From Peptococcaceae bacterium CEB3 (GTDB taxonomy: Bacteria > Bacillota > Desulfitobacteriia > Desulfitobacteriales > Desulfitobacteriaceae), in assembly GCA_001029295.1 (NCBI GenBank), contig LDXJ01000061.1:1-64000 (forward strand): DNA of 64,000 bases, given 5' to 3'. Under the pieces are notes generated by a model. That model was not told the origin of the DNA. It saw only the letters and a list, made by a program, of their open reading frames with translations, and made no database searches. Positions 19,272 to 48,640 of this stretch are shown piece by piece. How positions within the stretch are numbered: position 1 is the stretch's first letter; each line of letters starts with the position of its first letter. Made by a program: the position numbers and the translations under genes.

Positions 19272-20294
19272 TTATAGCGATTCAGTTAGCAATTTATGTA
19301 AGTGCTTTTTCATCTCTTTTTCTGTTAACCTTTCTACTGAATACTTCGTTATCCTCATCAACCTGTCTCGCCCTTTCTTAACCACAATGTTGTATGTTGA
19401 GCCAATTATATTCTTTGAAGCAATAATTTGATACTTGAAATCTAAGTCTACGCCTACCCAAACTTGTTTACGTCCAGTAATTGTAACTGGACTCCAATCT
19501 ATTGGAATTGAAACTTTACCTAATTCGCTTCTCATTGTATGGGCATTGGGGTATCTTGAACTAGGATCGACGCTCAATGCCTTATTAATTATGGCCTTTA
19601 GCTTTTTAGGAACGTCAGGCGAGTATATATCCCTAGGTGGAAACTTTCCTGTTACAATTTCATATGACAACTTACCCCTATTTATAGAACTCAAAAACCC
19701 ATCACCATTTACCATTCGATATAATGTAAGACCTAATGAGTAAATATCAGCTTCGCGAGTATATTCGCCTAATGTAAAAACCTCGGGAGCCTTATGAAAA
19801 GAATATCCAAAGGAAGACTGGTACTTACCATCTTCATCTAATTCCGAGGTTAATCCGAAATCCGATAATTTTGAAACCTTCGAGTCGTCAAGAAGAAGAT
19901 TATTCGGTTTAATATCCCGGTGAATAAAGTTATTATTGTGAATAAATTGGAGCCCATGCAATGCATCTATGGCTATCCTTATTGCTTGTTTTATGGAAAG
20001 CTTTCTTCCGTCCTTCATCAGCTCCGAAACAGCACCGTTCTCAAGAAACTCCATTAAAATGTATAATTTATCATTTCTGACAAAAGCATCATATATTTCA
20101 ACCACATTCCTATGTTGCACCTTATGTTGTACTTTTGCTTCGACAGTTCCTTTGGGGCCTAGTCTTGAAACATTCTCTATAATTTTTACTGCCTCGATTC
20201 GACCTACTACCTTATTATATGCCTTATAGACAGAACCAAAGTAACCGTTACCTCGGTTTCCTAAGTTATCATACTTTTCCGCAATGTCATGCAC
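19272..20294 (-). CDS. Hanks-type Ser/Thr protein kinase
   Basis: The 340-residue protein has all kinase motifs: a Gly loop variant (RGNGYFGSVYKAY), the Lys of EAVKII, HRDIKPNNLL, LSDFGLTSEL, KAPEVF (APE) and a late Arg in PSSRYPNAHTM. It has no membrane segment or PASTA repeats, so it is cytosolic, unlike PrkC. About 85 residues after the kinase domain are of unknown type. The start is a GTG directly after the TAG of the DUF3010-like gene, so the two are translationally coupled. Kinases in this kind of setting can act as defence or stress effectors; its target is unknown. Confidence 0.88.
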   Translation of the reverse strand: MHDIAEKYDNLGNRGNGYFGSVYKAYNKVVGRIEAVKIIENVSRLGPKGTVEAKVQHKVQHRNVVEIYDAFVRNDKLYILMEFLENGAVSELMKDGRKLSIKQAIRIAIDALHGLQFIHNNNFIHRDIKPNNLLLDDSKVSKLSDFGLTSELDEDGKYQSSFGYSFHKAPEVFTLGEYTREADIYSLGLTLYRMVNGDGFLSSINRGKLSYEIVTGKFPPRDIYSPDVPKKLKAIINKALSVDPSSRYPNAHTMRSELGKVSIPIDWSPVTITGRKQVWVGVDLDFKYQIIASKNIIGSTYNIVVKKGRDRLMRITKYSVERLTEKEMKKHLHKLLTESL

Positions 20295-22877: not shown

Positions 22878-24725
22878 TCAAAGCATAATGTGCAGCCGTT
22901 CCGGAGGTAAATAGAGCTGTACCTTGACACCCTTTTCTAGCCTTAAGCCTTGCACCTGCTGCTTGAGAACTAAGGCTGTCAATCTAGTAGGGTCGACAAA
23001 TTGAAGTTTACATAAGATACCCCAAGGCAATATTTCCTCAACCACTGCCAGGATGTGATTCGCTTCGCCCCGAACATGCACCTTCCCATCATACGCGTCA
23101 TCCGGAGCTTTGCGTCTTGACTCATCGTCCAACAGAATCTCAGGTTCCGCGTTTAGATTTGGACCATCGGGAGCCTCTTGGTCGGTCTTGAGAGCTTCTA
23201 CCAAGATATCCTCCGGGCGGATACCGAGATAGATTTCTTCGTTTCCGTCGATATCCTCCATGTTTCCGTAAATACCCTTGTTTCCTTGAATACCTTTCTT
23301 TCTATGAATGTTCTTATCTCCTTGAATAGCCTTATCTCCGTGAATACCCTTATCTCCGTGAATACCCCTATCCCGTTGAATACCCTTGTACCCCTGACTA
23401 CCCTTGCTTTGATGAATGTCCTTGTCTCCATGGATGCCCCTGTTTTTATCAATATCCTGGTTTTCATCCTGGTTTTCATGAATCTTTTCGCCTTCCTGAA
23501 CCTGACCAACTTCCCGGAATCCGTACCCTGCCTGAGCCTCCTTCGCTTCTCCGGTTCCTCCCCGGGGTCGACTTGTCAGAGGGAACGAACTATAGGTAAA
23601 AAGACGTCCCAGACCGGGCACTTCGACCTCCCAGAACCAATTCTCCGCCTGGGCTTGGACTGTATCTGTGACTTTCTCCCCACCCTGCCCTGACCTATAG
23701 TCAAGCGTCGGGGATCCACCGGCAGCGGAGATGTCCTCTTTAATCATCTTTTTCACCTGGGAAACGGTCCCTTTCAAGATGTTATCCATCCCAATAAACC
23801 TGGCGGTCGCCACGTCCGCGGGACGACTGAAGACTTCTTCCATCTTTCCGGTCTGAACCACTCTGCCCTCCCGGAGAATGCACACTCCATCGGCCAGGGA
23901 CCAAGCCTCCGCCTGATCATGGGTGACATAGACCGCCGTTAGGTTAAGCGTCCTGAGAATCCTGCCCAATTCCGCCCGCAGTTCCTCCCGCGTGCGGGCA
24001 TCCAGGGCTGACATGGGTTCATCAAACAAGAAAAGCTTGGGCTGCTGGATGAGAACCCTGGCTAAGGCCACACGCTGTTTTTCTCCCCCGCTCAATTGTC
24101 CGGGATATCGTTCCAGGAGATGTCCTATCCTCAGTGTTTCGACAATCCTGGCCAAACTAAACGGCCCGGCGTTTTCCGATCCCGGCCGTTCGTTCAATCG
24201 GCTTTTCTCCGCCGGCACCCCTTCACCTCGTTCGTTCACCTCCGGACATGGGACAACAATGGATCCGGACGGCTTCCCGGGCAAGTCCCTTTCGGCCTGT
24301 CCGGATCCCGGGTCAGAATTTGCCTCTTGCCACACCGGCACCTGGGTCAAGCGCCGGGCCAACCGTGAGCCAAGAGAACCCAGACGATGCGTACTCTGAA
24401 ATCTTTGCGAGAAAAGAATATTGGCCCGCACGCTGAGATGGGGAAAGAGGGCATAATCCTGAAACATGAAACCCATCTGTCGCAGTTCGGGGGGATAGTG
24501 GGTAACTTCCTGGCCGTCAAGCACGATTCGCCCCCCCAAGGGCCGGTTAAAACCTGCCACACTCTCCAAGAGGACAGATTTGCCGGAGCCACTGGCGCCC
24601 AGAACCACAAGAACCTGCCCACGCTGAAGGCGAAGCGTGATATTCCGCAGTCGAAACGTCCCCACCTGGACAGACAAATTCTCTACTGCCAGGAAATCGT
24701 CCGTACCGGATGAAACTGCCATCAT
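22878..24725 (-). CDS. Molybdate/tungstate ABC transporter ATPase with unusual insertions
   Basis: This is the ATPase of the WtpABC-like importer; a normal one has about 350 residues, this one 615. Walker A GASGSGKS (43-50), Q-loop FMFQDYALFPH (88-96), signature LSGGE (211-215), Walker B LFLFDEP and switch THD are intact. Two inserts stand out: about 75 residues at 115-190 between Q-loop and signature, and a 418-497 stretch of hexapeptide repeats (GIHGDK type) inside the C-terminal regulatory domain, which then resumes with LGIRPEDILVE. The start is set at 24725 (ATGATG after CGGGGG); an upstream in-frame TTG-type start at 24770 has no site. It is the last gene of the uptake operon. Confidence 0.8.
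   Translation of the reverse strand: MMAVSSGTDDFLAVENLSVQVGTFRLRNITLRLQRGQVLVVLGASGSGKSVLLESVAGFNRPLGGRIVLDGQEVTHYPPELRQMGFMFQDYALFPHLSVRANILFSQRFQSTHRLGSLGSRLARRLTQVPVWQEANSDPGSGQAERDLPGKPSGSIVVPCPEVNERGEGVPAEKSRLNERPGSENAGPFSLARIVETLRIGHLLERYPGQLSGGEKQRVALARVLIQQPKLFLFDEPMSALDARTREELRAELGRILRTLNLTAVYVTHDQAEAWSLADGVCILREGRVVQTGKMEEVFSRPADVATARFIGMDNILKGTVSQVKKMIKEDISAAGGSPTLDYRSGQGGEKVTDTVQAQAENWFWEVEVPGLGRLFTYSSFPLTSRPRGGTGEAKEAQAGYGFREVGQVQEGEKIHENQDENQDIDKNRGIHGDKDIHQSKGSQGYKGIQRDRGIHGDKGIHGDKAIQGDKNIHRKKGIQGNKGIYGNMEDIDGNEEIYLGIRPEDILVEALKTDQEAPDGPNLNAEPEILLDDESRRKAPDDAYDGKVHVRGEANHILAVVEEILPWGILCKLQFVDPTRLTALVLKQQVQGLRLEKGVKVQLYLPPERLHIML
23235..23470 (-). repeat. Coding tandem repeat, 18-bp unit, in the ATPase gene
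   Basis: About twelve imperfect 18-bp units encode hexapeptides close to GIHGDK (variants AIQGDK, NIHRKK, GIQGNK, GIYGNM). The unit length keeps the frame. The opposite strand is also open across the array, which is a by-product of the periodicity. Confidence 0.85.
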
Positions 24726-24804
24726 TATGTCCCCCGTTCCCAAGAAGCGCAAAAGCTGAGTCAAAACCATTGTCTTATGAAACTGCCATCACTATCGCCC
24801 CCGT
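24711..24804 (-). repeat. Short direct duplication at the permease-ATPase junction
   Basis: A 27-base stretch (CGGGGG, then a variable part, then GATGGCAGTTTCAT) occurs at 24777-24803 around the permease stop and again at 24711-24737 around the ATPase start. It suggests that the start region of the ATPase gene was duplicated, separating it from the permease stop by about 66 bases. Confidence 0.65.
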
Positions 24805-25607
24805 TTCCAGGCTCGTCCGTAGACCAAGCGGCGAAAGAGCAAAAACGTTGACAAAGTGATTAGGAGAAGAAGAAGTGCCGCCGCCGCTGACTGTCCTAAG
24901 TTGCCGGCTAAGAAGAGCTCATAAATTTTAACCGGCGCCGTTTGCGGATAATAGGCCAGAATAATGACCGCTCCGAACTCTGCCACTGAACGGGCATAGG
25001 TGAGCACGGTCCCGCTTAAGATACTGCGCCCCGCGAGGGGAAGGGAAACCTGCCAAAAAACCTGGCTGGGCGAAGCCCCCAAGGTCCGGGCCGCCTTTTC
25101 CAAGCGAACGTCAACTCCTTGAAAACCCTCCCGGGCCGAATTAACCATATACGGTAAACTGACAAAAAGCATTCCGACCACGACTCCGGCCAGCGTTCCC
25201 CAGAACTTGAGGCCGACTTGAGCCGCCAGCTGCCCCAGAAGGGCTGTGCGGCCAAAGGCATACAAAAGTGCGATGCCGGCCACAGTATGCGGAACCGCCA
25301 AGGGCAAATCCACAACCCCTTCCACCAGCGATTTTAGCGGAAAATCCCGTCGGGCAAGAAGATATGCCAAGGGAGTCCCCAACAGGGCCGCTATGCCGGC
25401 GGAGAGCACGGCCGCCTCCAGACTCAAAAGAATGGAAGCACGCACATCGGGCATGGCGGCCACCCGGGCCACGGTTTGGCCAGACTCTTGACTAAACATC
25501 GCAACCAGTGGAAAAAGAATAAAGATGAGCAGGACGCTCCCCAAAAACCAAAAGAGAAGAAAGAGGACGCGCCCCCTAACCGGTTGGCTTTCTGGCATCG
25601 TTCCCAC
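24792..25607 (-). CDS. Molybdate/tungstate ABC transporter permease
   Basis: The 271-residue inner-membrane permease has about six hydrophobic segments and the binding-protein-dependent transport motif EKAARTLGASPSQVFWQVSL followed by P. The region VDLPLAVPHTVAGIALLYAFG is characteristic of ModB/WtpB/TupB proteins. The GTG start has GGGAG six bases upstream. It lies between the binding-protein gene (about 120 bp upstream) and the ATPase gene, forming a three-gene importer. Whether tungstate or molybdate is preferred cannot be read from this subunit; the AOR neighbour favours tungstate. Confidence 0.9.
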   Translation of the reverse strand: MGTMPESQPVRGRVLFLLFWFLGSVLLIFILFPLVAMFSQESGQTVARVAAMPDVRASILLSLEAAVLSAGIAALLGTPLAYLLARRDFPLKSLVEGVVDLPLAVPHTVAGIALLYAFGRTALLGQLAAQVGLKFWGTLAGVVVGMLFVSLPYMVNSAREGFQGVDVRLEKAARTLGASPSQVFWQVSLPLAGRSILSGTVLTYARSVAEFGAVIILAYYPQTAPVKIYELFLAGNLGQSAAAALLLLLITLSTFLLFRRLVYGRAWKRGR

Positions 25608-25726: not shown

Positions 25727-26887
25727 CTACTTGGGCCAGGCCTCCACCAGACTTTTTATGTCCGTGGGCACTTTGTCCATCGCGTAAGCATACGGTTTGG
25801 GCAAGAGGCCGAATCCGTCCTTTTTTAAAACCGCCTGTCCTTCGGGTCCCAAGAGAAAAGCGACATATTTTCGGGCCCAGGCGGCATTAGGCGCGTTATT
25901 CGGAATGGTGAGAGCGTAAACGATCGGTTTCCCGGTCAACTCGCCGTTTTTCGTCTTGGCCACCGCCCCTTTGTATTCCTTGCTATAGACCGGATCACTC
26001 AAATCGATCTGAGGCGGCAGTTTAAGGTATTTCAAATGATTCTGTTTCGCGTCGGATTTGTAGATGGCCAAATAATCAATCTGGCCGGTTTTCAGGGCGC
26101 TGAGAAGTTCGGTTTCCGTATCCCGCATATTGGTCTGAGGGGCGTTAGCCAAGATCTTCTCTTCTAAACCCGGGGCTTTATAGTATTTCTCCGCCAAGCT
26201 TAACATTTGCAATGTCTGGTATCCCGACGGGTCGGTGTCAGGGTTGGAGCGGCCAATCTGAACGCCTTTTTCGGCCAAGACTTGATACCAGTTGTCAGGA
26301 GTGATCTTGTCCTGTCCTTTGCTCTTATCCGTGTAGACAAAGGTAATCGCGTTACTGGCAAAGCCGACATACCAATCCGCGTATTTCTTTTGGCCGCCGG
26401 CACCCAACATGTACTTGGGAATCACACTGTAGTCGGCCACCGCCACCACGTCCGCCAGTTGTTTAAGATCCGTAACCTGCTTGACCATTTTGACACTGCC
26501 GCCAAATTGGGGTTGAACTGTAACATTGGGGTATTGGGCCTGGAACTTGGCATCCAGCTCCTTGAAGGGTTTGGCCAGGGTCCCCGCGGCGTAGACCGGC
26601 AGCGTCACTTTGGCCCCGGAAGCGGTCTGTCCCCCTGAACTGGCCGTATTCCCCCCGGCGGCTCCCTGTGTTGCGCCGCAGCCGGAAAGCACAAGCGCCC
26701 CCGCCAAAACCACAGGCAGAAGTCTCTTTCCTCTCCCCTGCTTGGTCCCACCGCCGAGCCTCTGCTTTGTCTCACCGCTGAGTTCCGACTTTGTCCCACT
26801 GCCGATCCCCTTCTTTGTCCCACTGCCGAGTTCCGACTTTGTCCCACTGCCGAGTCCATGAAAAATCCTCTCTTTGGTCTCAAACAT
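25727..26887 (-). CDS. Tungstate/molybdate-binding lipoprotein (WtpA-like) with repeat-bearing N-terminus
   Basis: The 386-residue protein has an unusual N-terminus: residues 11-50 are five octapeptide repeats (GSGTKSEL type), then KRLLPVVLAGALVLSGC gives a lipoprotein signal with Cys70. The mature part matches WtpA-like oxyanion-binding proteins: YAAGTLAKPFKELDAKFQ, FGGSVKMVKQVTDLKQLADV, ADYSVIPKYM, WYVGFASNAITFVY and IYKSDAKQNHLKYLKLPP. The ATG at 26887 has GGAGG 8 bases upstream, so the repeats are probably translated. A start right before KRLL would be the normal length. The anion-binding fold is clear; the ligand is inferred from context. Confidence 0.85.
   Translation of the reverse strand: MFETKERIFHGLGSGTKSELGSGTKKGIGSGTKSELSGETKQRLGGGTKQGRGKRLLPVVLAGALVLSGCGATQGAAGGNTASSGGQTASGAKVTLPVYAAGTLAKPFKELDAKFQAQYPNVTVQPQFGGSVKMVKQVTDLKQLADVVAVADYSVIPKYMLGAGGQKKYADWYVGFASNAITFVYTDKSKGQDKITPDNWYQVLAEKGVQIGRSNPDTDPSGYQTLQMLSLAEKYYKAPGLEEKILANAPQTNMRDTETELLSALKTGQIDYLAIYKSDAKQNHLKYLKLPPQIDLSDPVYSKEYKGAVAKTKNGELTGKPIVYALTIPNNAPNAAWARKYVAFLLGPEGQAVLKKDGFGLLPKPYAYAMDKVPTDIKSLVEAWPK
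26738..26857 (-). repeat. Coding tandem repeat, 24-bp unit, in the binding-protein gene
   Basis: Five imperfect 24-bp units encode GSGTKSEL, GSGTKKGI, GSGTKSEL, SGETKQRL and GGGTKQGR. They lie before the signal peptide, in a position normally only a few residues long. Confidence 0.8.
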
Positions 26888-27054: not shown

Positions 27055-28986
27055 TCACTCTGCCTGCGTTGGCCACGGCCCGTTCATGAATTTTCCCGCA
27101 TCCCGCAAGTCATATCCCCCCATGGCTCGAACCTCAGCCTGAAAATCAGGGCTGGCGATGACCGCTAAAAGTGTCTCCATCCGGTGATCGGCCAGATATT
27201 CTTGCGGAATAGCCAAGTCATAGCGTTCCTCCCCGATGGGAATGAAATCAAGCCCAAGAGAGAGTGCGGCACTCTGGATACCCAAGCCCGCATCTGCGCT
27301 GCCCGAAGCAATGGCCACCGCCACTCCCAGGTGGGTGAATTCTTCCCGGTCGTAACCGAGAATTTGCTCTTTATCTACTCCCTCTTGCGCCAGGAGGTAG
27401 TCCAGAAGAACCCGTGTCCCCGATCCCCCCTGCCGATTGACAAAACGAATTCTGCCATCCGCCAGGTCCGCCAGCGTCCGCAGCTTGAAAGGATTGCCCC
27501 GCGCTACCAACAGCCCTTGGGTGCGGTAGACCAGATTGACCAAGGCGACCCGGCGTTGCGGCAGAAGGCGTTCTAAATAAGGCCGGTTATATTCTCCGCT
27601 TTCAGGATCCAAAAGGTGGACCCCGGCCAAATGGGCTTCTCTTTTGCGCAAAGCCATGAGTCCTGCCATGCTGCCGACATGGGCCGAAGCCAACGCTCCG
27701 TGACGCCCGTTCATTTTGAGATAGCTGTCCATCAGGTCGAGTGTGAGGTCATGCGAACCGATGCAGATCAAGGTCTCTTCCAGTTCTTCCAGAGGACGCA
27801 ATAACTCCACCTGTACGGGCTCACCCTCATGGAAGCCTTCTTGCAGGCGGGGTACCCTCAAAATACCATCAGCTCGAACAAGACTCATCGTAACCCCGGC
27901 TCCCCGGTTGATCGGGGCGGCAACCCAGCGCTCCCCTACCTGCCCCAGCTTAACCCGGATGAACTCCTCACTTCCCAAGCCGGAGAACACCTTTTTGTTC
28001 AAGAAGGCCCGCAGCACAGGAAGCGTGCCGTCGGGCAAACCCTGTTCGTGTTTGATCCAAGCCTGCAGGAAAAGCCGGGCCGTTAAAAAGGCAGAAACCG
28101 GGTATCCAGGGATACCAATCACCGGTTTTCCTTTAATTTCCCCCAGCATCGCCGGTTTGCCCGGCTTAATAGCCATCCCGTGGGCATAAATCCGGCCGAA
28201 CTTTTCAATCAGGGGAACGGTGTAGTCATCCCTGCCTTGGGAGGACCCGGCAATGATGACTAAGATATCCTGGCTAGCCTCCATTTCCAGAACGGACCTT
28301 TCTAATTGTTCCCAGTCGTCAGCCACAATTGGCCAGACTTTCGCCTCTCCGCCCCACTCGGAGATCAAAGCGGAGAGAACAGTGGAATTGCTGTCGACAA
28401 TCTCACCCACACTTAAAGGTTGACCCGGCGCCCGAATCTCGTCCCCAGTGGGTAAAATGCCCACCCGCGGCTTGCGCCGCACGGCAAGTTCCGTCACGCC
28501 TCCCGCCAACAGGGCTCCCAGGTCCTGGGGGCGAAGGCGGTGGTGAATGGGCAGCAGAATTTCTCCTTCCACAATATCTTCGCCGACTGACCGTACGTTG
28601 CTCCAGGGAACGACGGCTCGTTGCAATAAGACCGCTTCCTCCGTCTTATTCAAGACTTCTTCTAACATCACGACGGAATCCATTCCTTCCGGCATGGGAT
28701 CCCCCGTATCCACGGGAAGTGCCTCACTACCGAGTTGAAACCAGCGCGGCCGGCGTTCATTCAGGCCAAATGTCTCTCTGGCCCTCACGGCATAGCCGTC
28801 CATGGCCGCCGCCGGATATTGGGGAGAGCTGCGCCGGGCCCGCACCGTTTCACCGGTGATTCTGCCCAAAGCATCGCTTACCCCGACGCGCTCGTTTTGA
28901 GGCTGACAACGCGGCCCGAGTTCTTTCATCATCAAGGCCAAGGCCTCTTCCCAAGCCTGGTTTTTCAAATAAATCTTCTGGTCCAT
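27055..28986 (-). CDS. MoeA-like molybdopterin molybdenumtransferase fused to a PBP-like domain
   Basis: The 643-residue fusion has an N-terminal MoeA part (residues 1-400: AMDGYAVRA, DTGDPMPEGMDSVVMLEE, GILPTGDEI, VIIAGSSQGRDDYT, KPGKPAMLGEIKGKPVIGIP followed by GYPVSA) that inserts metal into molybdopterin. The C-terminal 200 residues form a periplasmic-binding-like domain (FVNRQGGSGTRVLLDYLL, HLGVAVAIASGSADAGLGIQ) known from a family of MoeA fusions in anaerobes. The ATG at 28986 is chosen for its GAGGGGA site. It follows moeA by 35 bases. Two MoeA proteins side by side suggest separate metals or cofactor forms. Confidence 0.88.
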   Translation of the reverse strand: MDQKIYLKNQAWEEALALMMKELGPRCQPQNERVGVSDALGRITGETVRARRSSPQYPAAAMDGYAVRARETFGLNERRPRWFQLGSEALPVDTGDPMPEGMDSVVMLEEVLNKTEEAVLLQRAVVPWSNVRSVGEDIVEGEILLPIHHRLRPQDLGALLAGGVTELAVRRKPRVGILPTGDEIRAPGQPLSVGEIVDSNSTVLSALISEWGGEAKVWPIVADDWEQLERSVLEMEASQDILVIIAGSSQGRDDYTVPLIEKFGRIYAHGMAIKPGKPAMLGEIKGKPVIGIPGYPVSAFLTARLFLQAWIKHEQGLPDGTLPVLRAFLNKKVFSGLGSEEFIRVKLGQVGERWVAAPINRGAGVTMSLVRADGILRVPRLQEGFHEGEPVQVELLRPLEELEETLICIGSHDLTLDLMDSYLKMNGRHGALASAHVGSMAGLMALRKREAHLAGVHLLDPESGEYNRPYLERLLPQRRVALVNLVYRTQGLLVARGNPFKLRTLADLADGRIRFVNRQGGSGTRVLLDYLLAQEGVDKEQILGYDREEFTHLGVAVAIASGSADAGLGIQSAALSLGLDFIPIGEERYDLAIPQEYLADHRMETLLAVIASPDFQAEVRAMGGYDLRDAGKFMNGPWPTQAE

Positions 28987-29021
28987 ACTCGCTCCCCTCG
29001 TTTTAACACCGCCCTCAGCTC

Positions 29022-30266
29022 TCAATATCGTCTCAAAGGCCGTACTTTCACCTTTTCGCCGGCCTGGATTCCCTCAACATTTAAAGGGATATGCACCAAC
29101 CCATTAGCCAAAACCATGGTCCGGATGAGACCTGATTTCCCACGGACGGGTTCGGCCAGCCAATTCCCATCTTCCTGTTCGAGGCGCACCCGGACAAATT
29201 CTTCGCGCCCTGTACCGGAATAAACGTTTTGGCTGAGCTTTACCTCCGGCCAGGGGAACTCCGAGCGCCGGCGGGAACCGTCTAAGAGGGGCCTGACCAG
29301 AGTGTCGAACACGACCATCGCGGAAGCGGGATGCCCCGGCAAACCGATGATGATCTTATCTCCCACCACTCCCCCGATAGTCGGCTTGCCGGGTCTCAAG
29401 GCCAGACCGTGAAAAAGAAGTCCCGGCTGCCCCAATTCACCCATCATCTGAGCGGTCAAATCCCTCGCCCCCACCGAGCTCCCTCCGGATAGGATAACAA
29501 CATCATTTTCCGCCAGCATGTGCTCCAAAATACTCCGCAGCTCTGCGGGTTCATCCGCGGCAATACCGTAGTAATGCGCTTCAAATCCGGCCTCGATAGC
29601 TTGGCCCAAAAGGGTATAGCCGTTAATATCCCGCGCTTGGGCGGGCAGCGGCTCCGACTCGGGGGATACGATTTCATCTCCGGTGGAGAGAATTCCCACT
29701 CGCACTCGGGTCAGAACCGGAACGCTCAGGATACCTTGGGAAGCGAGGAGCCCCATCTCCTGAGCCCGAATGACAGTATATTGAGGCAGGATAACCTCGC
29801 CGGCCTGCAAATCCTCGCCGATATCAATGACATTTTCCCCGGGCGCCACAGCTTTCGTTACTCCGTAAAGCCCTTCGCCGAAATCCTCCAGGTGTTCCAA
29901 CATGACCACAGCGTCGGCCTCCGCCGGCAGCATTCCGCCTGTCGGGATGAGAAGACCTTGCCCTAAGTCCAGAGTTTCCCGCGGGGCCCGCCCCATCATG
30001 ACTTCACCCCGCACTTGGACCAGGGCCGGCAGACTTTCACTTGCACCAAAGGTGTCCTGGGCCCGAACGGCCAAACCGTCCACCGTCGACTTGCGGAAAT
30101 GCGGCAACGGGCCTCTTGCGGGAACATCAACCGCCACGACCCGCCCCAAAGACGTGCTCAGGGAAACTTCTTCTTTCCTCTCATATAAGGGCTGAACGTA
30201 AGGTTCCAGTACCTCTAAAGCTTCAGCCAAAGTGATTACGGAAAAAAGTTCCTTACCCCACCCCAT
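29022..30266 (-). CDS. moeA: Molybdopterin molybdenumtransferase
   Basis: The 414-residue enzyme joins metal (molybdenum or tungsten) to adenylylated molybdopterin. Landmarks are STVDGLAVRAQDTFGAS, LIPTGGMLPAEADAVVMLEH, GILSTGDEIVSPE, VILSGGSSVGARDLT, RPGKPTIGGVVGDKIIIGLP followed by GHPASA. The ATG at 30266 has GGGAGG seven bases upstream; a TTG two codons earlier is too close to that site. The gene sits in the minus-strand cofactor operon between the thiF-like gene and the MoeA-PBP gene. Confidence 0.92.
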   Translation of the reverse strand: MGWGKELFSVITLAEALEVLEPYVQPLYERKEEVSLSTSLGRVVAVDVPARGPLPHFRKSTVDGLAVRAQDTFGASESLPALVQVRGEVMMGRAPRETLDLGQGLLIPTGGMLPAEADAVVMLEHLEDFGEGLYGVTKAVAPGENVIDIGEDLQAGEVILPQYTVIRAQEMGLLASQGILSVPVLTRVRVGILSTGDEIVSPESEPLPAQARDINGYTLLGQAIEAGFEAHYYGIAADEPAELRSILEHMLAENDVVILSGGSSVGARDLTAQMMGELGQPGLLFHGLALRPGKPTIGGVVGDKIIIGLPGHPASAMVVFDTLVRPLLDGSRRRSEFPWPEVKLSQNVYSGTGREEFVRVRLEQEDGNWLAEPVRGKSGLIRTMVLANGLVHIPLNVEGIQAGEKVKVRPLRRY

Positions 30267-30351
30267 GCTCAAACCTCCCCCACCACGTTCTTTTCACAAA
30301 CTTCCTCTCTCAACCTTCCTCCGGAAGCAACCGGAAATCCTCTGACTTTAG

Positions 30352-33554: not shown

Positions 33555-33578
33555 ACACTGGATCACAGACTGACCCGC

Positions 33579-33695
33579 GTTTTTAACCAGACTAACCCAC
33601 ATTTTAACCAGACTAACCCGCTTTTTAACCGGAAGCGGACTCCATGATGGGTCCTATGACGGGCCTTATGACAGGCCCTATGGCGGGCCCTATGA
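33579..33695 (+). repeat. Two short tandem repeats in the aor leader
   Basis: First block (33579-33633): a 21-bp unit close to TTTTAACCAGACTAACCC, two full copies and a partial. Second block (33648-33695): four 12-bp units of the type GGCCCTATGACG. An in-frame run of ATG codons in the second block could make a Met-rich leader peptide, but it has no ribosome binding site. Confidence 0.75.
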
Positions 33696-36243: not shown

Positions 36244-36532
36244 GCCATCGCCCCCCTTCTCAAATTGGCTCCCATCCCATTTTACTCTGTTATTGTGCTC
36301 CACGACAACCTCCGGAATGTATAAAAGTGTTCAACATTTTTGGCCATCAATCTGTACAAGGCGTCTTATGAATACGAATTGACAAACCGGGCCCTAACAC
36401 CTACAATCACAGACAGACCGGGAGAAATTTACGCTTTTGGGGCCCGAGCGAGACGTGGTGCGGATAATTGTAAGGCTCCCGCCTTCATAAACGCCCTTTC
36501 AATTGATTAGGGGTAACGACATGATCCTGAGT

Positions 36533-36562
36533 AATCCCTCTTGAAACAATCCCTCTTGAAAC
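36533..36562 (+). repeat. Perfect 15-bp tandem duplication before an ABC transporter operon
   Basis: AATCCCTCTTGAAAC occurs twice in a row directly before the GGAGG site of the ABC-2 ATPase gene. The rest of 36244-36532 holds no recognised feature. Confidence 0.75.
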
Positions 36563-36574
36563 GGAGGAATGCGC

Positions 36575-37558
36575 GTGCTAATACAAGACATGGACAAGGA
36601 CACCCCGGTTCGAGCCGGACACGCCGTCGCGGTAACTGATCTGACCAAAGAATTCGGTTCCTTTACCGCCCTCTCCGAACTGAATTTCCACATTGATAAC
36701 GGCGAAATCTTTGGGCTTCTCGGTCCAAACGGCTCCGGAAAAACCACCACCCTAAACATAATTGCCGGACTCAGTGTGCCGACAACAGGAAAAGTGGCTG
36801 TGTATGGACTGAACCCGCGCGAACAGTCCGCCGCGGCCCGTCGCCTTATGGGTGTCGTTCCGCAAGAGACCGCCCTCTACGAAGAACTCACGGCCGAAAA
36901 GAACCTGACCTTCCACGCGGAGTTGTTCGGGATTCCCCGCCGAGAACGCGCGGAACAGGTGAAGCGGATGCTGGAGCTGGCACAGTTGAGCGACCGGGCC
37001 AAGTCACGTGTCAGCTCCTTTTCAGGGGGCATGAAGAGGCGTCTGGCCATTGCCCGGGCTTTGCTGCACGACCCGAAGCTCGTCTTCCTCGACGAACCGA
37101 CTCTGGGGGTCGATGTGCATTCCCGCAACATGATCTGGGATTACATCCGTAAAACGAGAGACGAAGGGCGCTCCATCCTGCTCACCACAAATTACCTTGA
37201 GGAAGCGAATGCCCTTTGCGATCGGATCGCCATCATCGACCACGGCAGGCTGGTGGTTCTTGATACGCCAACATCACTTAAGACAAAGTACGGCAAGAGT
37301 GTCATTGAAATAACCTTACATACGGATGTTACAGAAGGCCTAGACCGCACAATGCAAACTGTCCCAGGCGTACAGTCTGTGGATAGGCAGGGCCCGACGC
37401 TCCGACTCTCCCTCGGAGACGTGGATTCAGGGGCGGTTTTACCCCACTTGCTTCAGCTTTTGGATCAGGAAGGGTCCAAAACCCAACGCCTGAGCCTGCG
37501 GGAACCCTCGTTGGAAGAAGTGTTCCTGGCGCTTACCGGAAGGGGGTTGCGAGATTGA
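36575..37558 (+). CDS. ABC-2 type transporter ATPase
   Basis: The 327-residue ATPase has Walker A GPNGSGKTT, Q-loop VVPQETALYEELT, signature SSFSGGMKRRLAIARALL, Walker B LVFLDEPTLGVD and an H-loop-position TTNYLEEANALCD (Asn where His is common in importers; variants occur in exporters). The GTG at 36575 is chosen because GGAGG lies 7 bases before it; the ATG at 36569 is only one base from that site. The first of two permease genes overlaps its stop by 4 bases. It powers an exporter; the cargo is unknown. Confidence 0.92.
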   Translation: MLIQDMDKDTPVRAGHAVAVTDLTKEFGSFTALSELNFHIDNGEIFGLLGPNGSGKTTTLNIIAGLSVPTTGKVAVYGLNPREQSAAARRLMGVVPQETALYEELTAEKNLTFHAELFGIPRRERAEQVKRMLELAQLSDRAKSRVSSFSGGMKRRLAIARALLHDPKLVFLDEPTLGVDVHSRNMIWDYIRKTRDEGRSILLTTNYLEEANALCDRIAIIDHGRLVVLDTPTSLKTKYGKSVIEITLHTDVTEGLDRTMQTVPGVQSVDRQGPTLRLSLGDVDSGAVLPHLLQLLDQEGSKTQRLSLREPSLEEVFLALTGRGLRD

Positions 37559-38655
37559 ACGGGCTCAAGGCCGCGTGGGCCATCATGAAGAACGATTTGG
37601 CCCTGAACCGGGCTCAACCCTTTGCCAGCATCATTACCATCGTGCTGCCCGTCAATTTTCTTATTTTCTTTGTTCTCTTTGCCCTCAGCGGCGGCAAAGC
37701 CCCGGTCACAGTCTATCCGGCTGACACACAACCCTATGCTCAATCTATGGTTCAAGCGCTCGATCACTCGCTCACTTTCCGCGTCCATTCGGTAAAGACA
37801 GAGGCAGAAGGCCAAGCCTACCTTGCGGCTGACAGATCGGTGGCTTCCATCGGGATACCGTCTGGATTCTCAGGCGCTGTGGCGACCGGAAAGCCCAGTG
37901 ATCTTCAGGTGACGATCGACAACAAAAACAAGGATTTCGCCGATGATATCCGCCGCGGCCTGCCCTTAGACATCTTGGATTTTTACCGGCGCTCGAAACC
38001 GGAGGCTTTGCCTCTGCAATGGCGGGAAAAAGACGCTTATCCCTTTAACGTTAGTTTCTTGGGGTATCTTTCCGTGAGCGTCCTGACGGTCGCTCTGCTT
38101 GTCGGAGGATTGCTTTTGGGCGGTCGCGGCGTAGCCAGAGAATGGGAAACCGGCACCATGAAAGAGTTAATGCTGGCGCCGGTTCCCGGTTGGAGTGTGG
38201 TCGCCGGAAAACTCGGTGCGGGGCTTGTTAATGGGTTGGCCGCGGCACTCCTGATTGTGTTTGGTTTAATCCTTCTGGGCGTCAAGCCCGGGGATCCGGC
38301 CCAGTTTATCCTTGTTGTCGTTCTTTTACTGTTGGTCTTTGTGAGCCTGGGAGTGGCCGCCGGAAGCCTTTTGCGCTCCCAGTCCACCGTCACCCCCTTG
38401 GCCTTTGCCCTTGGCCTGCCGCTGTTTTTCATCAGCGGAGCCTTCAGCCCTATTTCCTGGTCTACGCCGGCCAGCGCAGACATCGCCAGGATATTTCCGG
38501 TCGTTTACGCCAATGCCGTGCTTCAACACTCAGTTCACGGTTACTGGCCCATTGATGTCAGCGGTCCGGTTCTCTGGCTCATCCTGATCCTGTGGACTGT
38601 CGGCGCTTTGAGTGTAAGCGTCTGGATCTACCGGCGTTCGACGGCAACACATTAA
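37555..38655 (+). CDS. ABC-2 type permease, first of two
   Basis: The 366-residue membrane protein has the ABC-2 layout: one N-terminal membrane segment, a large extracellular loop (residues 45-160) and five more segments. RGVAREWETGTMKELMLAPV is the conserved ABC-2 motif. It starts with TTG overlapping the ATPase stop (TTGA), so translation is coupled. Together with the next permease and the ATPase it forms a heterodimeric exporter of the YhhJ/YbhR type. Confidence 0.88.
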   Translation: MNGLKAAWAIMKNDLALNRAQPFASIITIVLPVNFLIFFVLFALSGGKAPVTVYPADTQPYAQSMVQALDHSLTFRVHSVKTEAEGQAYLAADRSVASIGIPSGFSGAVATGKPSDLQVTIDNKNKDFADDIRRGLPLDILDFYRRSKPEALPLQWREKDAYPFNVSFLGYLSVSVLTVALLVGGLLLGGRGVAREWETGTMKELMLAPVPGWSVVAGKLGAGLVNGLAAALLIVFGLILLGVKPGDPAQFILVVVLLLLVFVSLGVAAGSLLRSQSTVTPLAFALGLPLFFISGAFSPISWSTPASADIARIFPVVYANAVLQHSVHGYWPIDVSGPVLWLILILWTVGALSVSVWIYRRSTATH

Positions 38656-38674
38656 GAGGCGGAGGGCGAAGCAA

Positions 38675-39784
38675 ATGAACTTCCCCATGATCTGGGCGCT
38701 TGTCAAAAAGGATCTGGCCATTTGGAGCCGCAGTGTGGCGACCATTGTTGTAACCATCGTTCCGGCCCTGGTGCTCCTTCTTGTCCTTGTGCTGGGAGCG
38801 GCTGCCGTCTCCGGTAATCCAGTGGCCATCGTGAACGAGGACAGCGGCGGAATGGCGGCCCACAAGTTCGTACAAATGGCGCAGGCTTATTCCGGATTCA
38901 ATGGAGCAGCGGTCATGACAGCCCAGGAGGCAACCCTGAATTACGAAAAGCTGCGTGTGGCCGCCATCTTGACAATACCGGCGGATTTCTCGGCCGCTCT
39001 CGCCAATGGCCGCCGGCCGGTCATCGAATGGCAGGTACGCAATTTCAACGATGATGTCGCTAACGACCTGCGCCGGGCCCTACCGGACATTGTGGACGAA
39101 TTCGTCAAAAGCGGGGCTGCGGGCGTCAATCCAATCCATATCAACGTCGAAGAACACGACTTGCACGGGACCGACGCGGGTTTTGTCGCCTTCAACCTGG
39201 TCTCTATCCTGGTCGTTCTAATCCTCCAATCGGGCATCGTCAACGCCGGCTTGGCCTCAGTGCGCGAGTGGGAATCAAAAACCGTCAAGGAGCTCCTGAT
39301 GTCTCCGGCCTCCTCGCTAACCCTGATCGCGGGTAAAGTCCTTGCCGGTGTCATTACCAGCAACGCCGCCAGTTGTATCGCTTTAGCCTTTGCTTACCTT
39401 CTCGGAGTGATTACGAACGTGTCTTGGCCTTTACTGGGTTTATCCTTGCTCATGATGACCCTCATCGGAGTATTCGGGTCCGGTGTGGGACTTCTCCTGG
39501 CGGCCGTTCTGCGCAAGACCGAAAGGGTCAGTGCCGTGTCCATCATTGCGGCGTTTTATTTATTTTTCTTAGCCGGTGGGCTCGCCGACGTTGCCTATTT
39601 GCCTCCCTGGCTTCAAGCCCTGGCCCGCTTTATCCCCAACACCTACGCTGTGAGCGCGTTGAGAGACACCCTCCTGTACAACTCGACAGTGGGATTGGGC
39701 AAAGATTTTGTCGTGCTGGGTCTGTCCTCTTTGCTGGCGCTGGCGCTGGGCGTACCGATGCTTCGACGGGGTCTCGAGAATTAA
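38675..39784 (+). CDS. ABC-2 type permease, second of two
   Basis: The 369-residue membrane protein is built like its upstream neighbour: N-terminal segment, extracellular loop (50-170), five further segments, and the motif ASVREWESKTVKELLMSPAS. GGCGGAGGGC lies about 8 bases before the ATG. The two permeases probably pair over the shared ATPase. The 3' end overlaps the convergent inositol-monophosphatase-like gene by 4 bases. Confidence 0.88.
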   Translation: MNFPMIWALVKKDLAIWSRSVATIVVTIVPALVLLLVLVLGAAAVSGNPVAIVNEDSGGMAAHKFVQMAQAYSGFNGAAVMTAQEATLNYEKLRVAAILTIPADFSAALANGRRPVIEWQVRNFNDDVANDLRRALPDIVDEFVKSGAAGVNPIHINVEEHDLHGTDAGFVAFNLVSILVVLILQSGIVNAGLASVREWESKTVKELLMSPASSLTLIAGKVLAGVITSNAASCIALAFAYLLGVITNVSWPLLGLSLLMMTLIGVFGSGVGLLLAAVLRKTERVSAVSIIAAFYLFFLAGGLADVAYLPPWLQALARFIPNTYAVSALRDTLLYNSTVGLGKDFVVLGLSSLLALALGVPMLRRGLEN

Positions 39785-40650
39785 ACTTCGCCGCACCCAG
39801 GGCTCGTCTTCAGTGCCCCGAGTAGTTCGCCGTGAATCGATCCATTACTGGCCACCAAGACATCCCGGCCGAAGCGGAACGGTTGTCCCTCCAAATCCGT
39901 CACTTTTCCCCCGGCCTCCTGCACGAACAGAACACCGGCTGCGATATCCCAGGGCGCCAAGCGCCAATGCCAAAACCCGTCAATCCGCCCCGCCGACAAA
40001 TATGCCAAATCCAGCGCGGACGAACCGGAAATCCGCACACTTTGGCACCGTTTGTACATTTGACTCAATTCCGGGCGAACCATGTTGTCGCCGAATAAGT
40101 CTTGAGCGGAAAACCCGGTATTGATCAGGCTGTCCCGCAACTCTCTCTCCTCTGATACCACCAGCTTACGGTCATTCACCGTTGCTCCCATACCCCGTAC
40201 CGCACTAAACAGCTCATTGCGGTTAGGATCGTAAACCACCCCGACCAACGGCTCGCCGCCCTTAACAATCCCTATAGAAACGGCAAAGTGCGGAATACCG
40301 TGCACAAAATTTGTTGTTCCGTCCAAGGGGTCGATCACCCAACAATATCTTTCCTCCTGGGTCATCTTGGCCAGATCGACCAGACGGTCAGCCGTCCCCT
40401 CTTCCGCCAGGATTAAATGTTCGGGGAAGCGACTTTCGACCCATTCCGTAAGCATTCTTTCGCAACCTAAATCAAACTCCGTCACCAAATCGACGTAATA
40501 CTTCTTCCTTTGGCATTGCACTTCGGTCAAACTGCTGCGTTTCTGCGCCAGCCAGCGCCCGGCCATGACAGCATATTGTTGGGCATGTACCAACAGCAGA
40601 ATACTTCCGCTATCCAATTCCCCGCTTTTATATATTTCTTCCTCCAGCAC
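39781..40650 (-). CDS. Inositol-monophosphatase-family phosphatase
   Basis: The 289-residue metal-dependent phosphatase has EEGTADRLVDL with the first metal-binding acids, WVIDPLDGTTNFVHGIPHFA (DPLDGT motif) and LAPWDIAAGVLFVQEAGGKV (WD motif), all intact. It is the last gene of the sugar ABC operon, 10 bases after the GntR gene, so it may dephosphorylate a sugar or polyol phosphate imported or formed by that pathway. Members can act on inositol, glycerol or fructose bisphosphates; the substrate is not shown. The start is a GTG with AGGTG upstream. Confidence 0.88.
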   Translation of the reverse strand: MLEEEIYKSGELDSGSILLLVHAQQYAVMAGRWLAQKRSSLTEVQCQRKKYYVDLVTEFDLGCERMLTEWVESRFPEHLILAEEGTADRLVDLAKMTQEERYCWVIDPLDGTTNFVHGIPHFAVSIGIVKGGEPLVGVVYDPNRNELFSAVRGMGATVNDRKLVVSEERELRDSLINTGFSAQDLFGDNMVRPELSQMYKRCQSVRISGSSALDLAYLSAGRIDGFWHWRLAPWDIAAGVLFVQEAGGKVTDLEGQPFRFGRDVLVASNGSIHGELLGALKTSPGCGEV

Positions 40651-40660
40651 GGTTGAACAC

Positions 40661-41383
40661 CTACTCCCTCTTTCTCCTCACCCAAAAATGAAAGATGTCA
40701 TTTCTTAAATAATCAAAGGAATACAACACGGGCCTGTTTGTCTCGTCATAATAAAGCTGCTTCATCAGCAACACCGTGCTATTAGGATTGGGATTCAAGA
40801 GCAGCTTTTGGCAAAAGCGGTCGTTTGACGGGGGCACACTGATTTCCGTATCCGCCCGTACTAAAGCGATTTGGCATTCCCGCTCCAGAAAAGCGAAGAG
40901 AGAGTCGGGAACTTCCTTTCCGAGCAAACGATCCCCCACGTAACTTTGCGGCAGAACGTTCCAAGATAAGGCCACCGGTTCACTGTTCGCCGTGCGCAAT
41001 TGTTCCAGGATAACGACGTCCGTTCCCTCTTCAATGTCCAGGATAGCCGCCCATTCAGGCGAACAGGGGCTGATCCGCGTCTCCTCCTGACGTTCTCCCT
41101 CAATGAGTCCGGCCAGCCGAATCATGTCGCCCAGGCTCTCCAACTTCTCCAAACTGCTCGGAATCACCGGCAACTGATTGACCACAAAAGTCCCAAGGCC
41201 GTGTTTAACCAACAATTTCCCTTCATCGACCAATAATTTAATGGCGGCGCGTATAGTGACACGGCTCACTCCGTAATACTTGGCCAACTCAGATTCAGGC
41301 GGCAGGCGCTCACCGATCTTATAGTGACCGGTCTGAATCTTCATTTCGAGGGCCTGCTTTATTTCCTGATATCCGAATTTCAT
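40661..41383 (-). CDS. GntR/HutC-family transcription regulator
   Basis: The 240-residue protein has an N-terminal winged helix (IGERLPPESELAKYYGVSRV followed by TIRAAIKLL) and a C-terminal UTRA ligand domain (LEQLRTANSEPVALSWNVLP, PVLYSFDYLRNDIFHFW). It is encoded within the sugar ABC operon, between the HAD fragment and the phosphatase. A GTCTAGAC palindrome in the operon promoter resembles operators of this family, so autoregulation by an imported sugar or its phosphate is likely. Confidence 0.9.
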   Translation of the reverse strand: MKFGYQEIKQALEMKIQTGHYKIGERLPPESELAKYYGVSRVTIRAAIKLLVDEGKLLVKHGLGTFVVNQLPVIPSSLEKLESLGDMIRLAGLIEGERQEETRISPCSPEWAAILDIEEGTDVVILEQLRTANSEPVALSWNVLPQSYVGDRLLGKEVPDSLFAFLERECQIALVRADTEISVPPSNDRFCQKLLLNPNPNSTVLLMKQLYYDETNRPVLYSFDYLRNDIFHFWVRRKRE

Positions 41384-41810
41384 CCTTGCTTTCTCCCGTA
41401 ATCATGTGTGCCACGTTTTGTTCAATCCAGTTCACCACCTCGGCCACCGCGTGTTGGTCATGGCACACTGAACAAAAACCGGCCACTTTTTTCAGCTCAC
41501 GATGGGCGTTGCCGACCGCAACTCCGAAACCTGCCGCCTCCAGCATTTCCTTATCGTTGGGGTTATCCCCCACCGCCACAACCCTCGAAGAGGGTATGCT
41601 CAAGTGCTTGCGCAGAAGACGCAAGGCCGCGCCCTTACTCGTGTCGGGCGGTAAAATCTCCAGAAAATACGGCTCAGAACGCACAAACGTAAAGGGCAGC
41701 CGCTCCCGTCGCAGAAAAGACAGCACTTGATCGATTTCCGGAGGCTCCCCCGCCAGCAGTACTTTTTGCCAAGGCCCCGGGATGTCGCTCGGAGCTGAAG
41801 CATCTACCAA
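41319..41810 (-). pseudogene. C-terminal half of a Cof-type HAD phosphatase
   Basis: The frame contains the cap end and the second half of a Cof-type HAD hydrolase: RSEPYFLEILPPDTSKGAAL, VVAVGDNPNDKEMLEAAGFG then VAVGNAHRELK. The first 110 residues, including the catalytic DxDGT, are absent. The best start is a TTG at 41810 overlapping the permease stop, without a ribosome binding site. Without the nucleophile it cannot be a phosphatase. Its end overlaps the GntR gene by 65 bases. It looks like a deletion remnant kept in the operon. Confidence 0.7.
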
Positions 41811-42589
41811 TTGAAGGTGGCGACAAAAGCGGCGAGAATTCTTCGGGTAGACAAAGCGAAGACGACGAGCAATGGCAGGACCACGATTGCGGTGGCGGCC
41901 GCGAGCAGGTTCCATTGCATAGCCGCCTCACTGGAAAGGCCGATCATCGCCAAGCCGACGACCACCGGGCGCGAGGAAGCCGTATTAGTAACGATCAGCG
42001 GCCACAGGAAATCAGTCCAGTGATAGGTGACGGAGATAACCGCAAAGGCAATGGCCGCGGGCAGCGATTGGGGCAGGTAAACGCGGCGGAAAACTCCCAG
42101 CGTATTGTAGCCGTCTAAGCGCGCGGCTTCTTCCAGTTCCCTCGGTACCGAGCGAAACGCCTGGCGAAAAGACAACACCGCAATGCCGGAAACCGCGTAC
42201 GGCAGCATGATACCCGCTTTGGTATCCAAGAGGTGGAACGATCTCAAAAGTTGGTAATCTTGAATCATCACGGCATAGATCGGGATCACGATCTGCATAA
42301 TAAACACGGCCGTGATAAGCGATTTGAGAGGAAAGTCATAGCGAGCCAGAATAAACCCAACCACGGCACCGAAGATTAGTTGCACCAGCAAAAGGCCCAG
42401 AACTATAACCAGGGTATTCATAAAGTATTGGGCAAAAGGGGCCGCAGAGAAGGCCTCACGGAAATTCTCCCAAGTGAAACCAACCCCTCGGTTCCGCATA
42501 AAGAAGGCCTCGTACAACACCCAAAGGGTGGGAAATCCCCAGAGCAAGGCCACCAAACTGACCAGAAACGCCCGTACCTTCTTCTTCAT
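41804..42589 (-). CDS. Sugar-type ABC importer permease (MalG/UgpE-like)
   Basis: The 261-residue permease has six membrane segments and the EAA motif (EEAARLDGYNTLGVFRRVYL then P). The start ATG overlaps the stop of the upstream permease gene (ATGA). It belongs to the carbohydrate uptake CUT1 type. With its partner permease it forms the membrane channel. Confidence 0.92.
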   Translation of the reverse strand: MKKKVRAFLVSLVALLWGFPTLWVLYEAFFMRNRGVGFTWENFREAFSAAPFAQYFMNTLVIVLGLLLVQLIFGAVVGFILARYDFPLKSLITAVFIMQIVIPIYAVMIQDYQLLRSFHLLDTKAGIMLPYAVSGIAVLSFRQAFRSVPRELEEAARLDGYNTLGVFRRVYLPQSLPAAIAFAVISVTYHWTDFLWPLIVTNTASSRPVVVGLAMIGLSSEAAMQWNLLAAATAIVVLPLLVVFALSTRRILAAFVATFNW

Positions 42590-43536
42590 TGCCAATGAAA
42601 AGTCCTTCTTTCCAAAGTGATCAAAGCAAAAGCCGACAGGGCGGAAAGACCCGCCATGAGAAGGGTGGACAAGGCCGCCGCCATCCCCCACGAAAAGTAG
42701 TTGAAGCCCAGATTGTACAGGTAGTACATGATCAGGTTGGTTCCGTTGTTTGGTCCTCCCTGGGTTAACACGTAGACAGGGTCAACCGTTTCTAGGGCAT
42801 ATACCACCGACATCACGGTCACGAAAGAAATCATGGGCGCAATGACCGGCAGGATCACCTTACGGAAAGAGTAGAGATGGTGCGGATCTTCGGTTCTCAA
42901 GGCCTCCCTGACCTCGGGGGGAATGGACTGCAGACCGGCCAGGAGAAAGAGGGTAAAATACGGGGCGTACTTCCAAACAAAGAGGAGGACAAGGACCCCC
43001 AGAGCCGTTCCGGGGTGTCCCAGCCAGTTCTCATGGCCTAAGCCGAGAAAGCTTAACATCCTGTCCACCAGGCCAAAACGAGGAGCCAAGAAATACTGCC
43101 AGACGCTGGCGGCGGCGATCATGGGTATCACGGTCGGGGAAAACAAGCCGATGAGCAGAGGACGGGAAGAAAAGTTTCGCTTTTGGTTCAGGAGCAGAGA
43201 GAGGAAAAAGGCTATCACTAGGCACAAGATTACGGAAAGCACCGCGTAAAGCAGAGTGTTTCTCAGCACGAGGCGAAAAAGATGTGAGGCAAACAACTCC
43301 CGGTAATTTTTCAGCCCCGCGGGGCCTGTCGCCAGGCCCCGCGCATTTATAGCCAGAAAACTTTCCCACACCGTGCGCACCAGCGGGATCACAATAAACG
43401 TCAGGACCACGCTCAGAGGCAGAAGAAGCAATCCATAGCGGACCAGGTGAGGAAAAGCCGCTTGCAGCTTGGTCCTGACCATTGACCCGCGGGTATAGGC
43501 AGACCCTTCTTCTTTCGCGACCCACGAATCTTCCAT
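42586..43536 (-). CDS. Sugar-type ABC importer permease (MalF/UgpA-like)
   Basis: The 316-residue permease has six membrane segments and an EAA-like loop (REALRTEDPHHLYSFRKVIL then P); the usual E-A-A-x-x-D-G is changed to E-A-L-R-T-E-D, yet the glycine position is lost. ALETVDPVYVLTQGGPNNGT is typical of CUT1 permeases. It begins 5 bases after the binding-protein gene. Confidence 0.92.
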   Translation of the reverse strand: MEDSWVAKEEGSAYTRGSMVRTKLQAAFPHLVRYGLLLLPLSVVLTFIVIPLVRTVWESFLAINARGLATGPAGLKNYRELFASHLFRLVLRNTLLYAVLSVILCLVIAFFLSLLLNQKRNFSSRPLLIGLFSPTVIPMIAAASVWQYFLAPRFGLVDRMLSFLGLGHENWLGHPGTALGVLVLLFVWKYAPYFTLFLLAGLQSIPPEVREALRTEDPHHLYSFRKVILPVIAPMISFVTVMSVVYALETVDPVYVLTQGGPNNGTNLIMYYLYNLGFNYFSWGMAAALSTLLMAGLSALSAFALITLERRTFHWQ

Positions 43537-43541
43537 TTCCC

Positions 43542-44837: not shown

Positions 44838-44874
44838 TTTAACACCTCTTTCATTCAACTCAGTCAGAATCAGG

Positions 44875-45984: not shown

Positions 45985-46066
45985 GGTTTGTTCCGTTTTT
46001 TCACCCTCTTTCCGTTATTTTCCCGAAAAACCGGACACATCTTTTATCAGATGTCCCGTATAAGAT

Positions 46067-46106
46067 GTCTAGACCTCTTGAGGCCAAGCATAACATACGT
46101 ATGTTA
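46067..46106 (-). promoter_or_regulatory. Promoter and operators of the sugar ABC operon
   Basis: On the minus strand TTGGCC (-35) and TTATAC (-10) are about 17-18 bases apart. A GTCTAGAC palindrome (46067-46074), like GntR/HutC operators, lies between them, and a perfect 16-bp palindrome (TAACATACGTATGTTA, 46091-46106) lies just upstream. An ACATCT-N6-AGATGT repeat lies downstream of the start. Repression by the operon's GntR protein is the simplest reading. Confidence 0.5.
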
Positions 46107-46250
46107 GCGGCCGCTCAAGTTCGATTATGATTCTTGTAAAATACAGTTAAAATCTTGGTTTGCGTTTTTCGGTTAAACGGTTCGCTTGGCCTACAGCCAT
46201 AAGGGACTTTCACCGTCCAGCTAATCGCCATGCGCAGCGCACGCCAAAAC

Positions 46251-46274
46251 GGAGCCATCCGATCAGATGGCTCC
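46251..46274 (-). terminator. Terminator downstream of the CYTH gene
   Basis: A 9-bp stem (GGAGCCATC / GATGGCTCC) with a 6-base loop is followed on the minus strand by GTTTTGG. It separates the CYTH gene from the ABC operon. Confidence 0.65.
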
Positions 46275-46332
46275 CAGGGCATGCGTCGTATGACACGGAG
46301 TAGTCTCTAATCAAGGTCCTTTTCCTAAATCC

Positions 46333-48333: not shown

Positions 48334-48640
48334 CTGCGCGATAGCTATTAAGATTTTCTTTACTATACCTTGCATTGTCTGCTAAGCCGACTTTGCAAAA
48401 AATAGCAAACTCTATTATCTCAGTCAGTTGATCAAGTGTAAAGCATAGGCACCGATTCCCCAAACAAGCAAACCCTAGGGGAAACGATGACGGGCCTTCC
48501 CTAGATGTAGTTCGTGTTGTATAATCAGAACAGAGGTTCTACGCAAAAGTTCTATGGTGGTTTCAAGCTGTTTGGTCTTCTTACCCGCCCTCATCTCCTC
48601 GCTTCATAAATTCGTTGTTTCCTTTTCCGTAATTCCTTAG

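What the first reader, a model, noticed from the sequence alone, without database searches (positions are those of the whole stretch)
22878..24725. Tungstate/molybdate ATPase expanded by hexapeptide repeats and a second insert
The ATPase is nearly twice the usual length: about twelve GIHGDK-type hexapeptides lie in the regulatory domain and about 75 extra residues between Q-loop and signature, with all catalytic motifs intact. Such repeats in an ABC importer ATPase are very unusual.
Basis: seen in the sequence. Interest (0 to 1): 0.7.

Follow-up and report, generated by a model that had tools for sequence, protein, structure and literature searches.

The report
Transporter ATPase lengthened by young repeats
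An ordinary tungstate/molybdate import ATPase has been lengthened by floppy loops, one carrying a young six-residue repeat, and this is one case of a genus-wide excess of short tandem repeats that keep appearing in genes of these acid-loving sulfate reducers.

Summary
The gene (22878-24722, minus strand, 614 aa; homologues usually 350-400 aa) encodes the ATPase of a WtpABC-like tungstate/molybdate importer, next to moeA genes. It carries four insertions. About 10 contiguous plus 2-3 degenerate hexapeptide units (18 bp) lie in the regulatory domain, and an 84-residue segment lies between Q-loop and signature. Catalytic motifs are intact. In the predicted structure both domains fold confidently and all four inserts are disordered. 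The sister species Acididesulfobacillus acetoxydans (independent PacBio genome) has the same insertion sites, but its hexapeptide array is unrelated (EDPRAA type). Core dN/dS is 0.09-0.16, so the gene is under selection.

The repeat is not special to this gene. In sampled sequence this genus has 56-64 tandem arrays per Mb (at least 3 copies, unit 12-60 bp), against about 3 per Mb in twelve relatives. Arrays are nearly all species-specific, can be traced to single-copy seeds (WtpA in the same operon: one unit in the sister, five here), and preserve frame inside genes. CarA shows the same pattern.

Best explanation: DNA-level tandem duplication tolerated in flexible loops, not a repeat evolved for this transporter. 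The genus-wide process appears unreported; its cause is unknown (mutS and mutL are present).

The parts
22878..24722 (-). wtpC/modC-like ABC importer ATPase, 614 aa
   Evidence: Pfam ABC_tran 104.5 bits; best NCBIfam hit WtpC 261.5 bits, below its cut-off of 440; best PDB match 3D31 ModBC
24147..24398 (-). insert 1 (residues 109-192) between Q-loop and signature; not repetitive; shared with A. acetoxydans at 49% identity
   Evidence: dN/dS 0.49; pLDDT below 50 at 118-185
23646..23738 (-). insert 2a (residues 329-359), loop after the first regulatory-domain strand
23238..23591 (-). insert 2b (residues 378-495), loop before the conserved YLGIRPED strand; holds the hexapeptide repeats
   Evidence: pLDDT below 50 at 381-487
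23265..23405 (-). 18-bp tandem array, consensus GGTATTCATGGAGACAAG = GIHGDK, 7.8 copies by TRF (about 10-12 by eye in the protein)
   Evidence: no inverted repeat; no second copy in the sampled genomes
23067..23186 (-). insert 3 (residues 513-552), loop in the regulatory domain, 13% identity to the sister species
24792..25607 (-). wtpB-like permease
   Evidence: NCBIfam WtpB 267 bits, below its cut-off of 340; Pfam BPD_transp_1
25727..26887 (-). wtpA tungstate-binding lipoprotein
   Evidence: TIGR03730 268.1 bits, above its cut-off of 242.75
26741..26855 (-). 24-bp array, five octapeptide units (LGSGTKSE type) before the signal peptide of WtpA; one unit in A. acetoxydans
27055..30272 (-). two moeA genes, the first (27055-29025) with a C-terminal PBP-like domain; molybdopterin metabolism context

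Best explanation
This is a functional WtpC/ModC-like ATPase whose core is unchanged. The extra ~250 residues are four intrinsically disordered loops. The insertion sites predate the split of the two Acididesulfobacillus species. The GIHGDK array is a young minisatellite: a short seed inside a loop that was already long was tandemly duplicated in steps of 18 bp (slipped-strand synthesis or unequal recombination), survived because 18 is a multiple of 3 and the loop tolerates length, and is now decaying by point mutation. The same process runs across the genus, independently in each species. Shown: inserts, predicted disorder, core under selection, species-specific arrays, genus-wide excess, frame preservation. 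Inferred: the duplication mechanism, tolerance of the loop, and that transport still works.
For: Same sites but unrelated arrays in the sister species. Core dN/dS 0.09-0.16, insert 1 0.49, insert 3 0.68, repeat loop not alignable. Core pLDDT about 90, all four inserts below 50. Single seed to five copies in WtpA of the same operon; seed to ~150-bp array at a carboxyltransferase gene. Arrays: 48 in 864 kb (G000) and 51 in 800 kb (G001) against 4 in 1.2 Mb of twelve relatives. Nearly all arrays in syntenic stretches are species-specific. Unit divisible by 3 in 29 of 32 arrays in long ORFs against 35 of 67 elsewhere. CarA shows the same shared-insert, private-array pattern.
Against: Inserts 1, 2a and 3 show no residual periodicity, so they need not be old arrays. 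Substitutions between the hexapeptide units lean to third codon positions (10, 8, 19 by position), a hint of some constraint on the peptide. Most proteins of the genus are not lengthened: in 127 orthologue comparisons 9 are longer and 7 shorter by 15 residues or more. Only 16-18% of each genome was surveyed, and one genome per species.
Confidence: 0.75

Rival explanations
1. The repeat loop is a selected functional module, for example a His/Lys/Asp-rich segment that senses metal or oxyanion or tunes feedback inhibition of the importer through the regulatory domain.
For: It sits in the domain that in M. acetivorans ModBC binds molybdate/tungstate and inhibits transport (PMC10710835; structural match 3D31). 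Third-position bias among units. Both species have a long loop there.
Against: The sister's array shares no residue pattern with this one. The same kind of array occurs in unrelated enzymes and between genes. Normal-length relatives manage without it.
Confidence: 0.12
2. The inserts come from a mobile or palindromic repeat family inserted in frame, as Rickettsia palindromic elements are.
For: In-frame additions in many unrelated genes. One 51-bp unit occurs at two places in A. acetoxydans.
Against: No inverted repeat in the repeat region. No other copy of this array in 1.66 Mb. Only 14 pairs among 99 arrays resemble each other.
Confidence: 0.04
3. Assembly artefact.
For: The window genome is a 64-contig draft, and tandem repeats are error-prone in assemblies.
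Against: Units are imperfect (76% matches) and the array is only 141 bp; the frame stays open; the independent PacBio genome of A. acetoxydans has the same insert layout and the same excess of arrays.
Confidence: 0.02

Closest known systems
WtpABC / ModABC tungstate-molybdate importers (M. acetivorans ModBC, PDB 3D31; A. fulgidus ModBC, 2ONK)
   Same: Catalytic motifs, NBD fold, C-terminal regulatory domain, operon with binding protein and permease, molybdopterin genes adjacent
   Different: Four disordered inserts totalling about 250 residues; scores below the WtpC and WtpB cut-offs
Coding minisatellites / VNTRs in bacteria
   Same: Unit over 10 bp, tandem, in frame, divergent between close relatives
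   Different: Reported coding minisatellites are mostly in cell-surface proteins (PMC3899988); here they sit in cytosolic enzymes and at high genome-wide density
Rickettsia palindromic elements
   Same: Added in frame into conserved, unrelated genes (PMC10969869)
   Different: No palindrome and no dispersed family here; each array looks built from a local seed

Membership tests
ABC transporter ATPase (PF00005) | Pfam score above cut-off and intact Walker A, Q-loop, signature, Walker B, H-loop | tested here: met
   104.5 bits against 25; motifs read in sequence and alignment
Type I importer ATPase with OB/TOBE regulatory domain | C-terminal OB-fold domain | tested here: met
   By fold: confident strands and matches along the whole chain to 3D31 and MalK. 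By sequence alone Pfam TOBE_2 is below cut-off, 14 against 21
WtpC equivalog (NF040840) | Score above 440 bits | tested here: not met
   261.5 bits, best hit; the normal-length Desulfosporosinus orthologue also fails at 291.4
WtpABC importer | WtpA binding protein (TIGR03730) in the operon | tested here: met
   268.1 bits against 242.75
WtpABC importer | Tungstate preference over molybdate | not testable with these tools
   Needs binding assays
Minisatellite | Tandem unit over 10 bp, at least 3 copies | tested here: met
   18 bp, 7.8 copies
VNTR | Copy number varies between strains of one species | not testable with these tools
   Only one genome per species was held; the sister species differs in motif
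Rickettsia palindromic element-like insertion | Palindromic sequence belonging to a dispersed family | tested here: not met

The most novel reading that the evidence does not exclude
Acididesulfobacillus has a lineage-specific mutational process that keeps creating minisatellites and so keeps writing new disordered loops into cytosolic enzymes (WtpC, CarA, HypF and others) although mutS and mutL are present: a natural system for watching disordered protein segments being born.
Probability: 0.5. Interest if true: 0.7.

Novelty: new variant of a known kind. Interest (0 to 1): 0.5.

Why it matters
Two related species (mostly 85-92% nucleotide identity in syntenic genes) show repeat arrays from single seed to long array in unrelated cytosolic enzymes. 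That makes the origin of disordered insertions in conserved bacterial proteins directly testable. It also warns that an odd repeat in one gene can be a genome-wide mutational signature rather than an adaptation of that gene. For the transporter itself, the loops offer a clean test of whether the regulatory domain tolerates more than 100 inserted residues.

Tried and rejected
Loss of mismatch repair as the cause: full-length MutS and MutL are present in both species. Decayed arrays as the source of inserts 1, 2a and 3: no residual periodicity. Mobile or palindromic origin. High GC as the cause of the excess: G062 at 57% GC has none in 100 kb, and mostly GC-rich unrelated loci have 3 in 199 kb. 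General protein lengthening in the genus: not seen; of 127 orthologue comparisons with relatives 9 are longer and 7 shorter by 15 residues or more (controls 0 and 1 of 37; some proteins counted more than once). Papers on this genus that were found do not mention such repeats in their main text, and general literature searches gave nothing specific.

Full report
What is there. The gene at 22878-24722 on the minus strand encodes a 614-residue ABC ATPase (frame open from 24770; start chosen from the A. acetoxydans orthologue). Upstream of it in the same direction lie a permease (24792-25607), a substrate-binding lipoprotein (25727-26887) and two moeA genes (27055-30272). WtpA passes its family cut-off; WtpB and WtpC are best hits of the tungstate models but below the cut-offs, as are the normal-length Desulfosporosinus orthologues. 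The importer is therefore WtpABC-like, and the choice between tungstate and molybdate is open.

The repeat. TRF finds an 18-bp array of 7.8 copies at 23265-23405. In frame there are ten clear hexapeptide units and two or three degenerate ones in front. The self-match at period 18 scores 81, against at most 20 in 300 codon shuffles.

The inserts. Among the aligned homologues, only this protein and the A. acetoxydans orthologue (606 aa) carry the long insertions between Q-loop and signature and in the regulatory domain. In a 299-genome sample of the phylum, 19 strong homologues have frames of 349-429 aa. AlphaFold2 on a 14-sequence alignment of the window protein and fetched loci gives pLDDT around 90 for both domains and below 50 at residues 118-185, 329-359, 381-487 and 514-552. 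The model also shows that the regulatory insert is split by a folded hairpin (about 362-376), so there are four inserts, not two. The best structural match is ModBC of M. acetivorans, 3D31, then MalK-type ATPases; 3D31 is also the best sequence match in the PDB.

Selection. Between the two species dN/dS is 0.15 and 0.09 in the two halves of the NBD, 0.49 in insert 1, 0.68 in insert 3 and 0.16 in the C-terminal part; the repeat loop cannot be aligned meaningfully. The core is under purifying selection, so the gene very likely works. Insert 1 has kept its length and about half its residues.

Sister comparison. A. acetoxydans has a hexapeptide array in the same loop (TRF 7174-7273 in L013, unit ATCCGCGGGCCGAAGAAG), but the sequence is unrelated (EDPRAAEDPRAA). 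In WtpA the window has five octapeptide units in front of the signal peptide where A. acetoxydans has one. This is the clearest seed-to-array step. Another is at a carboxyltransferase gene: A. acetoxydans has CAAAAACAAGGGCAAGAAGAA where the window genome has about 160 bp of GAACAA-type repeat.

Genus-wide. The window genome (G000) is in the same genus as G001, whose contig length (4,520,225) equals that of A. acetoxydans NZ_LR746496.1. The 64 contigs match the published draft of Peptococcaceae strain CEB3 in number (PMC4541261) but its stated size is 5.04 Mb against 5.31 Mb here, so that identity is only a guess. With the same TRF settings, arrays of at least 3 copies and unit 12-60 bp number 48 in 864 kb of G000 and 51 in 800 kb of G001. 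Twelve relatives, three of them in the genus that contains Desulfosporosinus sp. FKB and one at 57% GC, have 4 in 1.2 Mb in all. A test with the control size set a little lower, at 1.14 Mb, gives p below 1e-12 for each species. A first-order Markov sequence gives none in 400 kb.

Turnover and frame. In about 90 kb of syntenic sequence, nearly every array is confined to one species; the SQGYP array is the clear exception. Among 99 arrays only 14 pairs resemble each other. Arrays inside long ORFs have a unit divisible by three in 29 of 32 cases, against 35 of 67 elsewhere (Fisher p 0.017 and 0.013 in the two species). ORFs carrying or adjoining arrays include HypF, a large UvrD-family helicase (AddA-like by length), a glycosyltransferase, a sugar transferase, SpoIIR, CarA, a 2-hydroxyglutaryl-CoA dehydratase component and a mechanosensitive channel. 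CarA repeats the WtpC pattern: frames of 492 and 532 aa here against 373-379 in Desulfosporosinus, with a domain-linker insert shared by both species and an array only in A. acetoxydans. HypF (847/849 against 766-777) and the helicase (1537/1551 against 1345-1360) are also long in the genus, though G062 has a longer HypF (892).

Interpretation. The simplest account is DNA-level tandem duplication that survives where the protein tolerates it. The mechanism of duplication is inferred; slippage and recombination are both proposed for minisatellites (PMC3899988). Mismatch repair genes are present, so their loss is not the cause. A role of the loop in feedback inhibition is possible but has only positional support. 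Two caveats: the genus shows no general lengthening of proteins (9 longer and 7 shorter among 127 comparisons), and inserts 1, 2a and 3 show no trace of periodicity, so their origin is not explained by the evidence here.

Limits. Only about 16% of the window genome and 18% of the sister genome were surveyed, controls were 60-200 kb each, and there is one genome per species. ORFs were called mechanically. The literature library holds only open-licence papers.

Noticed in passing
window 36321-46313: About 10 kb absent from the syntenic place in A. acetoxydans (0.3 kb there): an ABC-2 export system, an inositol monophosphatase, a GntR-type regulator and a solute-binding-protein ABC importer, so a species-specific gene cluster.
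   Followed up: partly
G000 and G001 genomes: The three Desulfosporosinus-genus controls and G024 show two extra MutS-family proteins (about 600-670 aa) that neither Acididesulfobacillus genome shows. Whether this bears on repeat instability is unknown.
   Followed up: no
L056:13890-14104 and L069:4751-5016: A 51-bp unit repeated 4-5 times occurs at two distant places of A. acetoxydans at 96% identity, unlike most arrays, which are unrelated to each other.
   Followed up: no
window 48640-48720, 50621-50721, 33566-33695: Further tandem arrays of 12-21 bp in the window that have no counterpart array at the syntenic place in A. acetoxydans.
   Followed up: partly
window 19272-20294: A Ser/Thr protein kinase (Pkinase 175 bits) beside short ORFs; context not studied.
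   Followed up: no
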